This document shows, in pieces, positions 17,919 through 21,576 of a stretch of DNA of 33,162 nucleotides (the stretch's first letter is position 1; each line of letters opens with the position of its first letter). The translations under genes were made by a program, and so were the position numbers. Origin of the DNA: Phycisphaerales bacterium (lineage in GTDB: Bacteria > Planctomycetota > Phycisphaerae > Tepidisphaerales > Tepidisphaeraceae); contig JANYKD010000514.1 in the NCBI GenBank assembly GCA_025361735.1, forward strand, positions 1 through 33,162. The letters are read 5' to 3'. Under the pieces are notes generated by a model, which saw nothing but the letters and a program-made list of their open reading frames with translations, did not search any database and was not told the DNA's origin.

Positions 17919-19406
17919 ATGATTTCCACGACCATGCCGGCGACGGATCCCGCCCCCCTGTACGAGACGGTGGCCGAGCACCTGACGCGGATGATTGAGG
18001 GAGGGACGTTCCGCCCGGGAGAACGGGTGCCGAGCGTGCGGGCGCTGGCGAAGCAGCAGCGGGTGAGCATCACGACGGTGCTGGGGGCGTACCGGCTGCT
18101 GGAGGACCGGGGGTTCATCGAACCGCGGCCGCAGTCGGGGTACTACGTCATGCCGGCGGGATCGCGCGGTTCCGGGAAGGTGATGGGTGGGAACTCGGCC
18201 GGCGCGGAGATGTGTCGCCCGGCGCGCGGCGCCAACAAAGTGAGCGTGCGGGAACTGATGTGGCGGATCATGCTCGATTCACAGAACCCGAATCTCGTGA
18301 AGCTGGGGGCGGCGATCCCGAATCTGCGGTTGTTGCCGGTGGTGCAGTTGAACCGGACACTGGCGCGGATTGGCCGCACCATGCCGCGGCGGGTGAATGC
18401 GTATGAAGACATGGCCGGCGCGCCGGAGTTGCGGGTGCAACTCGCACGCCGGGCGATGCGCCTCGGATGCGCGCTGACGCCCGACGAAATCGTGGCGACT
18501 TCGGGGAGTCAGGAGGCGATCACACTGTGTTTTGAGGCGGTGTGCAAACCGGGGGACATCGTGGCGATGGAGTCGCCATGTTACTACGGCTTCCTGCAGG
18601 CAATAGAGACGATGGGGCTCAAGGGGCTGGAGATCCCGACGCACCCGCGCGACGGGATGGACCTGACGGCGTTGCAGAAGGCGATAGAGGCCCATCCGGT
18701 GAAGGCGGTGCTGGTGATCGGGAATTTCAACAACCCGCTGGGTTCGTGCATGCCGACGGCGAGGAAGAAGGCGCTGGTGGAGATGCTGGCGCGGCGAGAA
18801 GTTCCGTTGATTGAGGACGACATCTACGGCGATTTATATTTTGGAGAGCCGCCGACGACGTGCAAGTCGTTCGACCGCAAGGGCCTGGTGCTGCTGTGCG
18901 ATAGTTTCTCCAAGTCGCTGTCGCCCGGTCTACGAGTGGGATGGACGGCGCCGGGGCGGTTCATCGAGCAGGTATCGTATTTGAAGATGGTCCGGACGAT
19001 CGCGTCGCCAACGCTGCCGCAACTGGCGGTGGCGGACTTCCTGGCGAACGGGGGCTACGAGCGTCACCTGCGGAAACTGCGGCGGACGCTGGCGGTGAAC
19101 GTGCGACAGATGGGGGACGCGGTGCTGCGGCACTTCCCGGACGGGACCACGGTGACCCGGCCGTGCGGGGGGCATGTGCTGTGGGTGCGGATGCCGGAGG
19201 AGATTGATTCGCGGATGCTGTACGCGCGAGCGATGGAAAAGGGGATCACGATTGCCCCGGGCCCGCTCTTTTCGACAAGGGGGTTGTACACAAATTTCGT
19301 GCGGCTGAACACCGCGTTCTGGGGATCTGATGGAGGGGACGAAGCGATCCGAACGCTGGGCCATCTAGCGGGCGCGTTACGCGGCGAGCGAAAACGGCGT
19401 CGGTGA
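17919..19406 (+). CDS. MocR-type (GntR/aminotransferase fusion) transcriptional regulator
   Basis: 495 residues. The N-terminal GntR winged helix (about 10-78: PLYETVAEHLTRMIEGG, PSVRALAKQQRVSITTVLGAYRLLEDRGFI in parts) is joined to a full fold-type I aminotransferase domain. The PLP-binding lysine is Lys332 in LCDSFSKSLSPGLRVGW, with the expected FNNPLG and EDDIYGDL segments before it. MocR proteins use PLP and an amine or vitamin ligand to control amino acid, GABA, taurine or B6 genes; some homologues are true aminotransferases. GGAG 6 nt upstream supports the ATG at 17919, 114 nt inside the longest frame. The divergent DUF2917 gene is the obvious target. No pdx, gab or tau genes are near, so the ligand is unknown. 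Confidence 0.9.
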   Translation: MISTTMPATDPAPLYETVAEHLTRMIEGGTFRPGERVPSVRALAKQQRVSITTVLGAYRLLEDRGFIEPRPQSGYYVMPAGSRGSGKVMGGNSAGAEMCRPARGANKVSVRELMWRIMLDSQNPNLVKLGAAIPNLRLLPVVQLNRTLARIGRTMPRRVNAYEDMAGAPELRVQLARRAMRLGCALTPDEIVATSGSQEAITLCFEAVCKPGDIVAMESPCYYGFLQAIETMGLKGLEIPTHPRDGMDLTALQKAIEAHPVKAVLVIGNFNNPLGSCMPTARKKALVEMLARREVPLIEDDIYGDLYFGEPPTTCKSFDRKGLVLLCDSFSKSLSPGLRVGWTAPGRFIEQVSYLKMVRTIASPTLPQLAVADFLANGGYERHLRKLRRTLAVNVRQMGDAVLRHFPDGTTVTRPCGGHVLWVRMPEEIDSRMLYARAMEKGITIAPGPLFSTRGLYTNFVRLNTAFWGSDGGDEAIRTLGHLAGALRGERKRRR

Positions 19407-19447
19407 GTGGGACGGTGTCGGGGTCCATTGTTAACGTAGTGTCATAG

Positions 19448-19470
19448 TGACTGCTCCGGGAATGCAGTCA
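19448..19470 (+). terminator. hairpin after the MocR gene
   Basis: TGACTGC / GCAGTCA with a 9-nt loop, 41 nt after the MocR stop and followed by GGATTTCG. A weak candidate terminator that would insulate the aroF leader promoter from upstream transcription. Confidence 0.35.
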
Positions 19471-19572
19471 GGATTTCGCATGCACAGGGTTAACCGCGGA
19501 AATGACTCCCGTTGAGGTTGGCACCGGACGCATCCTCGTGTGGAAACGCCGCAGTGTGAACTCCGAACCGGG

Positions 19573-19600
19573 TTGACGAAATCCGCAATCCTGCTAAACT
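19573..19600 (+). promoter_or_regulatory. predicted promoter of the aroF leader
   Basis: TTGACG (19573-19578) and TAAACT (19595-19600) are 16 nt apart. Transcription would start near 19607-19611, at or within a few bases of the leader-peptide ATG (19611), so the leader would be translated from a leaderless mRNA; no ribosome binding site precedes it. Confidence 0.6.
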
Positions 19601-19610
19601 CACTGCACCG

Positions 19611-19685
19611 ATGAACGGCACGCTCGCGAGTTTTGGGTTTTGGTTTAACGGATATTTTTATCCGGCCGCCCAAGCCGCGTCCTGA
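19611..19685 (+). CDS. aromatic leader peptide of the DAHP synthase gene
   Basis: A 24-codon ORF not large enough for standard gene finding. Residues 8-17 read FGFWFNGYFY: four Phe, one Trp and two Tyr in ten codons, a composition known only from attenuation leader peptides such as those of phe, trp and phe-tRNA synthetase operons. Its stop (19683-19685) lies inside the 5' arm of the antiterminator, so a ribosome finishing the peptide would mask that arm, whereas one stalled at the aromatic codons (19632-19661) would leave it free. A 6-bp hairpin CGGATA/TATCCG over the Tyr-Phe-Tyr codons could pause RNA polymerase. Inferred role: sense charged tRNA-Phe, -Tyr and -Trp and set transcription of aroF. 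It lacks a ribosome binding site and may be read as a leaderless message. Confidence 0.85.
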   Translation: MNGTLASFGFWFNGYFYPAAQAAS

Positions 19686-19729
19686 GCTGGTCATCTTTCG
19701 GTAAAAGATTCCAACCCCGGGACGCGGTT
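19673..19729 (+). promoter_or_regulatory. antiterminator of the aroF attenuator
   Basis: Bases 19673-19684 (AGCCGCGTCCTG) pair with 19718-19729 (CGGGACGCGGTT) as 12 contiguous pairs, including two G-U. The 3' arm takes up half the 5' stem and all the loop of the terminator, so the two structures exclude each other. A small hairpin, ATCTTT/AAAGAT (19693-19709), sits in the loop. Confidence 0.85.
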
Positions 19730-19747
19730 CCCGGGGTTTCTTTTTTT
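19713..19747 (+). terminator. intrinsic terminator of the aroF attenuator
   Basis: Perfect 10-bp stem AACCCCGGGA (19713-19722) with TCCCGGGGTT (19729-19738), loop CGCGGT, then TC and seven Ts ending at 19747. It lies before the gene it serves, after a leader peptide, so it acts as a regulated stop rather than an end-of-gene terminator. Confidence 0.93.
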
Positions 19748-19788
19748 GGTGTGTTGGTTTCGGCCGCACTTGGCCACCGGAGTTTGCC

Positions 19789-19851
19789 ATGTTGGTCTGG
19801 CTCAACTGGTTTGGTGCCTGGCGAAAAGGAGATCTGTCATGGTCGTGGTAA
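19789..19851 (+). CDS. Trp-rich upstream ORF overlapping the aroF start
   Basis: A 20-codon ORF between terminator and aroF, in a third frame. Trp occurs at residues 4, 7, 11, 18 and 20 (pieces: [14 protein letters not shown]), 25 percent Trp against about 1 percent expected. GGAG lies 6 nt before its ATG. It spans the aroF ribosome binding site (AAAAGGAG, 19824-19831), and its TAA (19849-19851) lies 10 nt past the aroF start, overlapping an internal in-frame ATG as TAATG. Translation through it and stalling on Trp codons must therefore affect aroF initiation directly: a ribosome stalled at Trp11 would cover the aroF site, while one reaching the end could hand over to aroF. The sign of the effect cannot be read from sequence. 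It could be chance in a TG-rich stretch, but the start signal and position argue against that. Confidence 0.7.
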
Positions 19852-20861
19852 TGAAACAAGGTTCGACCCAGGTTCAGGTGGACCAGGTCATCAAGCTGGT
19901 GCGAGAAATGGGACTCAAGGATCACGTCATCGTGGGCACCGAACGAACGGTGGTGGCCGTCATCGGCGACGATCGTCATAAGGACCGCTCCGTGTTCGAG
20001 ACGCTGGATGGCGTCGACAATGTCGTGCCGATCCTGGCGCCGTACAAGATGGCGTCGGTCGAGGTCAAGAAGGAGCGCAGCGTCGTGCAGCTCGGCGGGA
20101 CACTGGGCGGCAGCGTCGGCGGCAAGCGCGTGGGCGTCATTGCCGGGCCATGCTCCGTCGAGGATCGCAGCAAGATCATCGAGATTGCCCACATGGTGAA
20201 GGAGGGCGGCGCGGTCGGCCTGCGCGGCGGGGCATTCAAGCCGCGAACCAGCCCGTACGCCTTTCAGGGGCTCGCGGAAAAGGGCCTGCAATATCTTGCC
20301 GAGGCCCGCGAGCAGACCGGGCTGGCCATCGTCACCGAGGTCATGAGCATTGACCAGGTGGCCTTGGTGGCCGACTACTCGGACGTGCTCCAGATCGGGG
20401 CGCGCAACATGCAGAACTACAACCTCCTTTCCAAGGTTGGTGAACAGAACAAGCCGGTGATGCTCAAGCGTGGGCTGTGCGCCACGCTGGAGGAGTTCCT
20501 CCTGGCGGCCGAGTACATTATGGCCCGCGGGAACGTCAACGTCATTCTCTGCGAGCGTGGCGTGCGCACGTTCGAGGAATACGTCCGCAATACGCTGCCG
20601 CTGGCGGTCGTGCCGGCCATTCACCGCGTGAGCCACTTGCCCGTGGTCGTCGACCCGAGCCATGGCACGGGCAAGCGATATCTGGTCGATCCCATGTGTC
20701 GGGCGGCCGTGGCGGCCGGCGCGGATGGGCTGATTCTCGAAGTCCACCAGGATCCCGAGCATGCCCTGACCGACGGCGCACAGTCGATCACTCCCACCCA
20801 GTTCGCGGACATGATGAAGGTCATTCGGCGCGTTGCCGCAGCGGTGGATCGGGAAGCGTAG
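19839..20861 (+). CDS. aroF: 3-deoxy-7-phosphoheptulonate (DAHP) synthase, type I beta
   Basis: First enzyme of the shikimate pathway: phosphoenolpyruvate plus erythrose 4-phosphate gives DAHP. 340 residues, close to the type I-beta enzymes with an N-terminal ferredoxin-like regulatory domain (residues 1-70: [11 protein letters not shown]...[12 protein letters not shown]), which binds Tyr in related enzymes. The barrel shows GPCSVED (103-109), [29 protein letters not shown] and DPSHGTGKR; expected metal ligands are Cys105, His274, Glu301 and Asp312. The ATG at 19839 has AAAAGGAG 7 nt upstream and matches the family N-terminus; an in-frame ATG at 19851 overlaps the Trp-rich ORF stop. Transcription is probably governed by the attenuator at 19611-19747. 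trpF lies tail to tail downstream. Confidence 0.95.
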
Positions 20862-21576
20862 ACGTAGTTGATGATTGATAGTTGATAGTTGATAGTGGTG
20901 CGGACTCATCGACCGTGCGGACGGCGTTGATGAATCCACGCATCTTCTCCGGCGACTTGCAGCGGAGCTGCTCTTCGACGCCGCTGGAGACATCGACGGC
21001 AAATGGCCGGATCAGCCGCACGACGGCGGCGACGTTTTGCGGGTCCAACCCGCCGGCCACGATCAACGGCGGGAGACCGGCGAACAGGCCGGCGCTCTTG
21101 AAGCGGGCGATGGCGGTCCAGTCGTTCGCGATGCCAGTTCCGCCCGGCGCTGGCGCAGCGGTTTCCAGCACGATGCCCGCCAGCGTGGAGCCCAGGGCGT
21201 TGGCGTACGCCGTCTTCCATGCCGCAAGCGTCTGGGGCAGTTCCGCGTCCACGCGGACGGCCTTGAGGATGCGCACATTCAGGTGGGCAAGTTGCCCGGC
21301 AAATTCCGGCGTTTCATGGCCATGAAGCTGCACGCATGTCAGGCGCAGCGCCCGCACCGTCTGGGCAATCGTGTCCAGCGACGCATCGACAAACACGCCC
21401 ACGGCCATGACGAAAGGGGGGATTACCCGCACGATCTGCCGGGCCGCTTCCAGGGGCAGATAGCGTTTCGAGGAAGGGACGAAGATCATGCCCAGCGCAT
21501 CAGCCCCGAGCATGCACGCCAACTCCGCATCCTGCGGGCGGCAGATCGAGCAGATTTTCACGCGTGTACGCGGCAT
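20821..21576 (-). CDS. trpF: phosphoribosylanthranilate isomerase
   Basis: Third committed step of tryptophan synthesis (Amadori rearrangement of phosphoribosylanthranilate). TIM barrel with the catalytic Cys at residue 9 (VKICSI), [36 protein letters not shown] and [11 protein letters not shown]. Two oddities: the usual catalytic Asp before the GGTG loop is Glu138 ([14 protein letters not shown]), and the protein has 251 residues where about 205-220 is normal. The extra C-terminus after residue about 222 ([15 protein letters not shown]...) is encoded by the GTTGATAG repeat and then by the antisense of the aroF 3' end, which it overlaps by 41 nt. GAGG 5 nt before the ATG at 21576 supports the start; the frame upstream is not coding. 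It follows the oxidoreductase gene by 16 nt and is probably co-transcribed. Confidence 0.9.
20866..20897. repeat. GTTGATAGTTGATAG interspersed repeat, family B
   Basis: TAGTTGATGATTGATAG followed by tandem TTGATAG units, right after the aroF stop. AT-rich against a GC-rich background. It is read through by trpF, giving a low-complexity C-terminal tail. Related in unit design to the GTTGCCAG inverted repeat at 24304-24383. Confidence 0.75.

What the first reader, a model, noticed from the sequence alone, without database searches (positions are those of the whole stretch)
19611..19747. Complete transcription attenuator with an aromatic leader peptide in front of DAHP synthase
Seen: a 24-codon ORF with F-G-F-W-F-N-G-Y-F-Y in the middle; a 12-bp antiterminator (19673-19684 with 19718-19729) whose 5' arm contains the ORF stop; and a perfect 10-bp terminator with seven Ts that shares bases with it. 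Known: phe, trp and his operons of enteric bacteria use this logic. Inference: stalling at Phe, Trp or Tyr codons frees the antiterminator and turns aroF on, while completion of the peptide masks it and lets the terminator form. A leader that mixes all three end products fits the common first step of the pathway, whereas enteric DAHP synthases are mainly controlled by repressors. I know of no such description in planctomycetes.
Basis: partly seen in the sequence, partly recalled or inferred. Interest (0 to 1): 0.93.

Follow-up and report, generated by a model that had tools for sequence, protein, structure and literature searches.

The report
Leaderless three-aromatic attenuator before DAHP synthase
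In front of the gene for the first enzyme of aromatic amino acid synthesis, this planctomycete genome carries a tiny reading frame packed with phenylalanine, tryptophan and tyrosine codons and two mutually exclusive RNA folds, together predicted to switch the gene on when those amino acids run short; the leader and terminator recur in 80 of 195 related genomes examined, which matters because such a switch would need ribosomes to follow right behind RNA polymerase, a point disputed for this group.

Summary
Confirmed and extended. In a folding model of the window, the terminator's pairing probability is 0.00-0.02 with a ribosome at any of the seven aromatic codons and 0.96 with the ribosome at the stop codon or with no ribosome; it flips within two codons after the last Tyr. 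Leader plus terminator occurs upstream of DAHP synthase in 80 of 195 Planctomycetota genomes counted, 18 of 20 in the window's own family; reverse complements gave 0 of 174. Wobble bases vary most in the aromatic codons. New: in the window's family and a second one, 36 of 37 leaders start 34-41 nt after a TTGAC -35 box and lack a good Shine-Dalgarno sequence, so the leader mRNA is predicted to be leaderless. Similar leaders lie upstream in 8 of 13 Chloroflexota loci. The mechanism class is known; DAHP-synthase leaders are reported in Corynebacterium and Acholeplasma. There are no expression data. In two other families (f50, f91) folding did not show the switch.

The parts
19573..19600 (+). predicted promoter of the leader: -35 TTGACG (19573-19578), 16-nt spacer, -10 TAAACT (19595-19600)
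   Evidence: the only promoter-like match in 19400-19900; shuffles mean 0.1; TTGAC 34-41 nt before the leader start in 36 of 37 f1/f5 leaders, window included
19611..19685 (+). leader peptide ORF, 24 codons, no Shine-Dalgarno; start codon 38 nt after the first base of TTGAC, so predicted nearly leaderless
   Evidence: wobble-position variation in relatives
19632..19661 (+). aromatic codon cluster F-G-F-W-F-N-G-Y-F-Y (all Phe TTT, all Tyr TAT)
   Evidence: the seven aromatic positions are aromatic in 14-17 of 16-17 aligned rows
19649..19664 (+). small hairpin inside codons for GYFYP (19649-19654 with 19659-19664), possible pause hairpin
   Evidence: 87.9% of cells paired, 3 of 6 pairs with changes on both sides
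19613..19692 (+). predicted protector fold of untranslated RNA that occupies the antiterminator's 5' arm
   Evidence: free RNA: terminator 0.96, antiterminator 0.0
19673..19684 (+). antiterminator 5' arm, overlaps the leader stop codon
19718..19729 (+). antiterminator 3' arm, made of the terminator's 5' arm and loop
19713..19747 (+). intrinsic terminator: 19713-19722 with 19729-19738, T-tract to 19747
19827..19831 (+). Shine-Dalgarno AGGAG of the DAHP synthase gene
   Evidence: (score 5 of 5)
19839..20861 (+). DAHP synthase, B. subtilis-type, with ferredoxin-like domain
   Evidence: PRK08673, TIGR01361 above cut-off; PF00793, PF18152

Best explanation
The sequence upstream of this DAHP synthase gene holds a 24-codon aromatic-rich leader ORF and overlapping antiterminator and terminator stems, and together they most likely work as a ribosome-mediated transcription attenuator that reads Phe, Trp and Tyr supply. 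Predicted steps: RNA polymerase starts within a few bases of the leader's start codon, so a ribosome would load on an essentially leaderless 5' end; if charged tRNA for Phe, Trp or Tyr is short the ribosome would stall in codons 8-17 and leave 19673-19684 free, which pairs with 19718-19729, breaks up the terminator and lets transcription reach the gene; if supply is good the ribosome would reach the stop codon, cover that arm and let the terminator form; with no ribosome the leader RNA would fold on itself and also let the terminator form. Shown by sequence and computation: the elements, their conservation, their covariation and the modelled fold switch. Not shown: transcription start, translation, termination, stalling, response to amino acids.
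For: Elements at the stated places. Leader plus terminator in 80 of 195 Planctomycetota genomes counted with >=300 nt upstream: 18 of 20 in the window's family f1, 15 of 24 in f5, 19 of 20 in f50, 11 of 14 in f68, 6 of 8 in f91; controls 0 of 174 reverse complements, 2 of 522 shuffles. A covariance model of 17 f1 sequences hits 21 of 26 family genomes once each; by coordinates 19 of those lie just upstream of the DAHP synthase, 2 of them (G016, G019) not in the training set. Covariation score 0.180 against 0.124 in shuffles for antiterminator plus small hairpin and 0.290 against 0.157 for the terminator, 0 of 500 shuffles each. Pairwise variation in codons 8-17 at positions 1/2/3 is 0.22/0.32/0.46, against 0.65/0.67/0.63 in codons 2-7. 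All three aromatics are in 68 of 74 distinct leader clusters. Window: terminator 0.00-0.02 at the seven aromatic codons with a ribosome leading edge of 10 or 13 nt (with 16 nt 0.36 at the last Tyr, 0.00-0.02 at the other six), 0.96 at stop. Over 88 distinct loci the stall/stop contrast exceeds 0.3 in 27, against 9 of 528 shuffles, and is never reversed by more than 0.3. Leaderless geometry in 36 of 37 f1/f5 leaders.
Against: Only sequence and folding; no RNA or growth data. The stall/stop contrast above 0.3 is seen in 8 of 18 f1 loci, 7 of 15 f5, 2 of 11 f68, 0 of 18 f50 and 0 of 6 f91, so in f50 and f91 the alternative stem is not supported. Antiterminator duplex p<=0.05 in only 44 of 74. A first model that allowed pairing across the ribosome showed little contrast (f1 mean 0.95 at stop, 0.93 at last aromatic codon, 0.73 at first). 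On two covariation measures antiterminator plus hairpin do not stand out: pairs with double changes 6 against 4.0 (75 of 500 shuffles reach it), further pair types 18 against 16.0 (85 of 500). Of the 20 counted f1 genomes G013 has no leader ORF and G023 has the leader but a T-poor terminator; G017 (188 nt before the contig end, not counted) shows a terminator but no leader. Other Phycisphaerae families have none (f3 0 of 7, f8 0 of 7, f10 0 of 7, f12 0 of 9, f14 0 of 15, f16 0 of 13). The TTGAC geometry is not consistent in f50.
Confidence: 0.9

Rival explanations
1. The leader works by nascent-chain arrest: the peptide inside the ribosome tunnel senses free aromatic amino acid (as TnaC does, recalled) rather than tRNA charging at its codons.
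For: Cluster residues in f1 are conserved roughly as FxFWFxGYFY.
Against: Across families aromatic richness is kept but the order of residues is not; residues of codons 2-7 vary freely in f1; termination is predicted on completion, readthrough on stalling within the aromatic codons.
Confidence: 0.05
2. The main function is in trans: the terminated leader RNA or the peptide acts on other genes, as reported for rnTrpL/peTrpL of Sinorhizobium.
For: A predicted leaderless small RNA encoding a peptide, like S. meliloti trpL (PMC7298713 passages).
Against: In the window's family 19 of 21 model hits lie directly before DAHP synthase, and an antiterminator overlapping the stop codon has no role in such a scheme. 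It could be an added function.
Confidence: 0.03
3. The hairpin is just the terminator of the upstream MocR-type gene and the ORF is chance.
For: The MocR-like gene ends at 19406, about 300 nt before the hairpin.
Against: Controls, codon-position pattern, promoter-like site between that gene and the leader.
Confidence: 0.01
4. A protein- or tRNA-binding RNA switch (T-box or similar) controls the terminator and the ORF is incidental.
For: Terminator and antiterminator alone would fit.
Against: Three Rfam matches in 19400-19900, all far below their families' gathering scores and none a T-box; selection appears to act on codons.
Confidence: 0.01

Closest known systems
aroR-aroF attenuator of Corynebacterium glutamicum (Neshat 2014, known to me here through passages of PMC11802643 and PMC4046766)
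   Same: Leader peptide with aromatic residues upstream of a DAHP synthase gene; readthrough on stalling.
   Different: Leader has Phe-Tyr-Phe and responds to Phe, not Tyr, limitation; here seven aromatic codons of all three kinds, another phylum; sequences not compared.
uORFC-13-1 motif, Acholeplasma aroF (passages of PMC8632094)
   Same: Predicted uORF with Phe codon(s) next to a terminator stem upstream of aroF.
   Different: 24 examples, genus Acholeplasma plus environmental sequences; the passages seen speak of Phe only.
Leaderless leader peptides: S. meliloti trpL (PMC7298713 passages); S. lividans trpL1, leuL1, leuL2, ilvL (PMC8079986 passages)
   Same: Transcript starts at the leader's start codon; attenuation of amino acid genes.
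   Different: They control trp, leu or ilv genes (and some tRNA ligase genes); none in the passages seen is at DAHP synthase. There the starts rest on RNA data, here on prediction.
trpL and pheL attenuators of E. coli (textbook knowledge; summarised in PMC11802643, passages)
   Same: Three-part logic: protector, antiterminator, terminator; ribosome at the leader stop covers the switching arm (recalled).
   Different: One amino acid each and terminal branches; here one leader reads the three end products at the common first step.

Membership tests
Ribosome-mediated transcription attenuators of amino acid operons | Short ORF rich in codons for the pathway's end product(s) | tested here: met
   68 of 74 clusters hold F, W and Y
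Ribosome-mediated transcription attenuators of amino acid operons | Intrinsic terminator between leader and structural gene | tested here: met
   (by sequence; termination not measured)
Ribosome-mediated transcription attenuators of amino acid operons | Antiterminator that excludes the terminator and whose 5' arm a ribosome at the stop would cover | tested here: met
   for the window; contrast >0.3 in 8 of 18 f1 loci; not supported by folding in f50 and f91
Ribosome-mediated transcription attenuators of amino acid operons | Downstream gene in the biosynthesis of the encoded amino acids | tested here: met
   DAHP synthase
Ribosome-mediated transcription attenuators of amino acid operons | Leader is translated | tested here: inconclusive
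   codon-position pattern fits translation; no ribosome or peptide data
Ribosome-mediated transcription attenuators of amino acid operons | Readthrough rises when the amino acid is limiting | not testable with these tools
   needs RNA measurement
Leaderless leader peptides | Start codon at the transcription start, no Shine-Dalgarno | tested here: inconclusive
   36 of 37 f1/f5 leaders have TTGAC 34-41 nt before the start; Shine-Dalgarno score 2-3 of 5 in 35 of 36 (4 in one), against 4-5 at DAHP synthase starts; start sites not measured
T-box riboswitches | Match to the T-box covariance model | tested here: not met
   window 19400-19900, no T-box among the three matches at E<=1
C. glutamicum aroR attenuator | Sequence kinship of leader and stems | not tested
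   that sequence was not fetched

The most novel reading that the evidence does not exclude
A leaderless, three-amino-acid ribosome attenuator is an old and standard control of entry into the shikimate pathway across Planctomycetota and Chloroflexota, and its upkeep in so many lineages is genetic evidence that planctomycete ribosomes ride directly behind RNA polymerase, against a spatial split of transcription and translation in this phylum.
Probability: 0.45. Interest if true: 0.8.

Novelty: new variant of a known kind. Interest (0 to 1): 0.64.

Why it matters
It puts classical attenuation, known to me mainly from Proteobacteria and Actinobacteria, into Planctomycetota as a recurrent control of the pathway's first step, with one leader reading all three end products. 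Attenuation works only if a ribosome follows the polymerase closely, so the element turns a cell-biology dispute (a spatial split of transcription and translation was suggested for Gemmata; cited in PMC5394234, passages) into a simple reporter test; no named Gemmata genome was examined here. It agrees with a genome-composition study that does not list PVC phyla among those classed as having runaway transcription (PMC13323073 passages). In the window's family the control looks concentrated on DAHP synthase: 0 of 18 prephenate dehydratase and 0 of 24 trpE/pabB loci with enough upstream sequence carry a like element.

Tried and rejected
First folding model let RNA upstream of the ribosome pair with RNA downstream of it; rejected as unphysical and replaced by folding only RNA ahead of the ribosome. 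Both results are given.

The control 'other 600-nt windows' (6 of 144 at >=5 F/W/Y) includes true upstream regions of minus-strand loci and is not a clean null; the reverse-complement and shuffle controls are used instead. In one search minus-strand loci were read in the wrong orientation; corrected.

Checked and negative: the genome's other DAHP synthase (C373) has no such leader within 600 nt. A third PF00793 protein (C472, 271 aa) looks like KDO-8-phosphate synthase, by recall of the family. One search left out 5 of 23 prephenate dehydratase and 6 of 30 trpE/pabB loci for want of sequence, the window genome's own trpE (L320) among them; flanks re-checked. Families f10, f12, f14, f16, f3, f8 have no leader plus terminator; three f10 genomes have an aromatic ORF without a detected terminator. 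f5 leaders show no Phe codon bias relative to their gene, whereas f1 leaders do (TTT 50 of 68 against 21 of 137). Rfam gave three sub-threshold matches only.

Selection: from the class search (225 of 397 genomes with a match) and the phylum search (116 of 392) I took mainly the best-scoring rows, so 80 of 195 is not a random-sample frequency; 4 further genomes with under 300 nt upstream were left out. Of 26 family genomes 22 had their upstream read; G015, G020, G021 and G024 (no match, or only truncated or distant ones) did not. G017 (no leader) was left out of alignment A1 (17 of the 18 rows printed).

Full report
What is there. Between a MocR-like regulator gene (ends 19406) and a DAHP synthase gene (19839-20861, PRK08673/TIGR01361, with a ferredoxin-like domain) lies what reads as a complete attenuator on the + strand. 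A promoter-like pair TTGACG-16-TAAACT (19573-19600) is followed by a 24-codon ORF (19611-19685) with the core FGFWFNGYFY, an antiterminator (19673-19684 with 19718-19729) and a perfect 10-bp terminator (19713-19738) with a T tract to 19747.

Lineage. The window's assembly (G000, 7.5 Mb in 571 contigs, 84% complete, 6% contaminated) has no other held genome in its genus. Family members G012 and G011 have contigs of the same length and match position as records titled Phycisphaerae bacterium (L035, L036), so I place the window in Phycisphaerae, phylum Planctomycetota.

Conservation. I read up to 600 nt upstream of DAHP synthase orthologues from genomes of the family, class and phylum. With the criterion 'ORF of 8-70 codons with >=5 F/W/Y in 11 residues, terminator starting within 70 nt of its stop', 80 of 195 genomes are positive: f1 18 of 20, f5 15 of 24, f50 19 of 20, f68 11 of 14, f91 6 of 8, f57 2 of 2, f100 2 of 2, f18 2 of 3, f19 1 of 5, and the single genomes of f2, f71, f87 and f118; the other 26 families are at zero, many with one or two genomes. 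On the 174 with >=400 nt held at the time the count was 65, against 0 of 174 reverse complements, 2 of 522 shuffles and 2 of 37 homologues from other phyla. In G023 the leader is present but its terminator has a poor T tract, so it is not counted as positive; G013 has no leader.

Translation. In the f1 alignment, codons 8-17 vary at positions 1/2/3 by 0.22/0.32/0.46; codons 8-12, which lie before the small hairpin, by 0.19/0.24/0.47; codons 2-7 by 0.65/0.67/0.63; codons 18-24, which overlap the antiterminator arm, by 0.47/0.31/0.32. Seven positions are aromatic in 14-17 of 16-17 rows, and F, Y and W often replace one another. This is what selection for aromatic codons, not for a particular peptide, would give. 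All three amino acids are in 68 of 74 distinct clusters.

In f1 and f5 (here with >=4 F/W/Y, 37 leaders), 36 have TTGAC starting 34-41 nt before an in-frame ATG or GTG; over all ATG/GTG in the same stretches, leader starts included, it is 47 of 603, and for ATG/GTG outside the leaders, with a wider 28-48 nt span, 7 of 372. The exception is G018. Shine-Dalgarno similarity before these leader starts is 2-3 of 5 in 35 of 36 and 4 in one (G016), while the DAHP synthase starts of f1 and f5 score 4-5 of 5. So the leader mRNA is predicted to begin at or within a few bases of its start codon. In f50 the geometry is not consistent; a few f91 leaders (G511, G707, G739) have a CATAAT box 7 nt before an in-frame ATG.

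Switching. Folding only the RNA ahead of a ribosome with a 13-nt leading edge, the window's terminator probability is 0.00 at F8, F10, W11, F12, Y15 and F16, 0.02 at Y17, 0.36 at P18, 0.93 at A19 and 0.96 at the stop. The switch point thus sits just behind the last aromatic codon. Untranslated RNA folds 19613-19692 on itself and gives 0.96 terminator, the behaviour expected of a protector stem. 0 of 100 shuffles of the intervening stretch match the window's contrast; over 88 distinct loci 27 exceed a contrast of 0.3 against 9 of 528 shuffles, and none is reversed by more than 0.3. The contrast is seen in 8 of 18 f1, 7 of 15 f5, 2 of 11 f68 and 7 of 9 named loci, and is absent in f50 (0 of 18) and f91 (0 of 6). 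An earlier model with pairing across the ribosome showed little contrast.

Covariation. Antiterminator plus small hairpin: 80.7% of cells paired, score 0.180 against 0.124, 12 double-change cells against 5.1, each reached by 0 of 500 shuffles; but pairs with double changes (6 against 4.0) were reached by 75 of 500 and further pair types (18 against 16.0) by 85 of 500. Terminator: 97.6%, 0.290 against 0.157, 0 of 500. The 3' arm of the antiterminator is partly fixed by the terminator; the loop columns are free of that and pair in 17, 14 and 14 of 17 rows at columns 140-142, in fewer further on.

Specificity. A covariance model of 17 f1 sequences found one match per genome in 21 of 26 family genomes; by coordinates 19 lie directly upstream of DAHP synthase, including two not used for the model (G016, G019, whose leaders are read); G020 sits at a contig edge and G021 is marginal (E 0.08), neither checked. 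0 of 18 prephenate dehydratase and 0 of 24 trpE/pabB loci with enough upstream sequence have such an element; the window genome's own trpE is at a contig edge and was not among them. The genome's other DAHP synthase has none.

Beyond the phylum. Looking up to 2 kb upstream in 37 homologous loci from other phyla, 9 forward against 1 reverse-strand stretch meet a stricter criterion (>=6 F/W/Y); 8 of these are among the 13 loci titled Chloroflexi, Anaerolineales or the like, for example METSARFYFFWFYFYGSPRRTAVSGA in L079 before an AroH-like chorismate mutase (named by recall of the family) and two DAHP synthases. The ninth is titled Patescibacteria (L091).

Literature. Passages only were read: C. 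glutamicum aroR with Phe-Tyr-Phe, responsive to Phe (PMC11802643; PMC4046766); Acholeplasma uORFC-13-1 before aroF (PMC8632094); leaderless leader peptides in S. meliloti (PMC7298713) and S. lividans (PMC8079986). Related work in Planctomycetes that I saw is of other kinds: distance statistics of leader genes (PMC4833913) and LPPP uORFs related to arrest peptides (PMC10987492). No description of an aro attenuator in Planctomycetota turned up in searches of the open-licence library; most subscription papers are not in it. A spatial split of transcription and translation in Gemmata is cited in PMC5394234 (the original was not held). PMC13323073 does not list PVC phyla among those with runaway transcription.

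Verdict. A real, conserved element with the layout of a classical attenuator, in a phylum where I found none described for this pathway, with two less usual features: one leader reads all three end products at the common first step, and it is predicted to be leaderless. The mechanism in vivo remains untested.

Noticed in passing
L078, L079 (1408-1488), L082, L084, L087, L088, L093, L097: Chloroflexota loci carry aromatic-rich (mostly Phe/Tyr) leader ORFs plus terminators up to 1.6 kb upstream of DAHP synthase; in L079 the first gene after it looks like an AroH-type chorismate mutase followed by two DAHP synthases.
   Followed up: partly
L168 (G120), L178 (G202), L199 (G091), about 70 nt before DAHP synthase: Three f10 genomes have an ORF ending in GYRYWRRG or YAYWRRW close to the gene without a detected terminator; perhaps a translational or degenerate version.
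   Followed up: partly
   Followed up: partly
window 17940-19406 (+): MocR-like regulator (GntR plus aminotransferase domains) just upstream of the leader promoter.
   Followed up: no
window about 20926-21561 (-): Phosphoribosylanthranilate isomerase (TrpF) domain, convergent with DAHP synthase.
   Followed up: no
G000:C373 (L002, L005) and G000:C472 (L003): The genome has a second DAHP synthase (46% identical) without a leader, and a third PF00793 protein that looks like KDO-8-phosphate synthase.
   Followed up: partly
f1 leaders against genes: Leader Phe codons are TTT in 50 of 68 although the f1 DAHP synthase genes use TTT in 21 of 137.
   Followed up: partly
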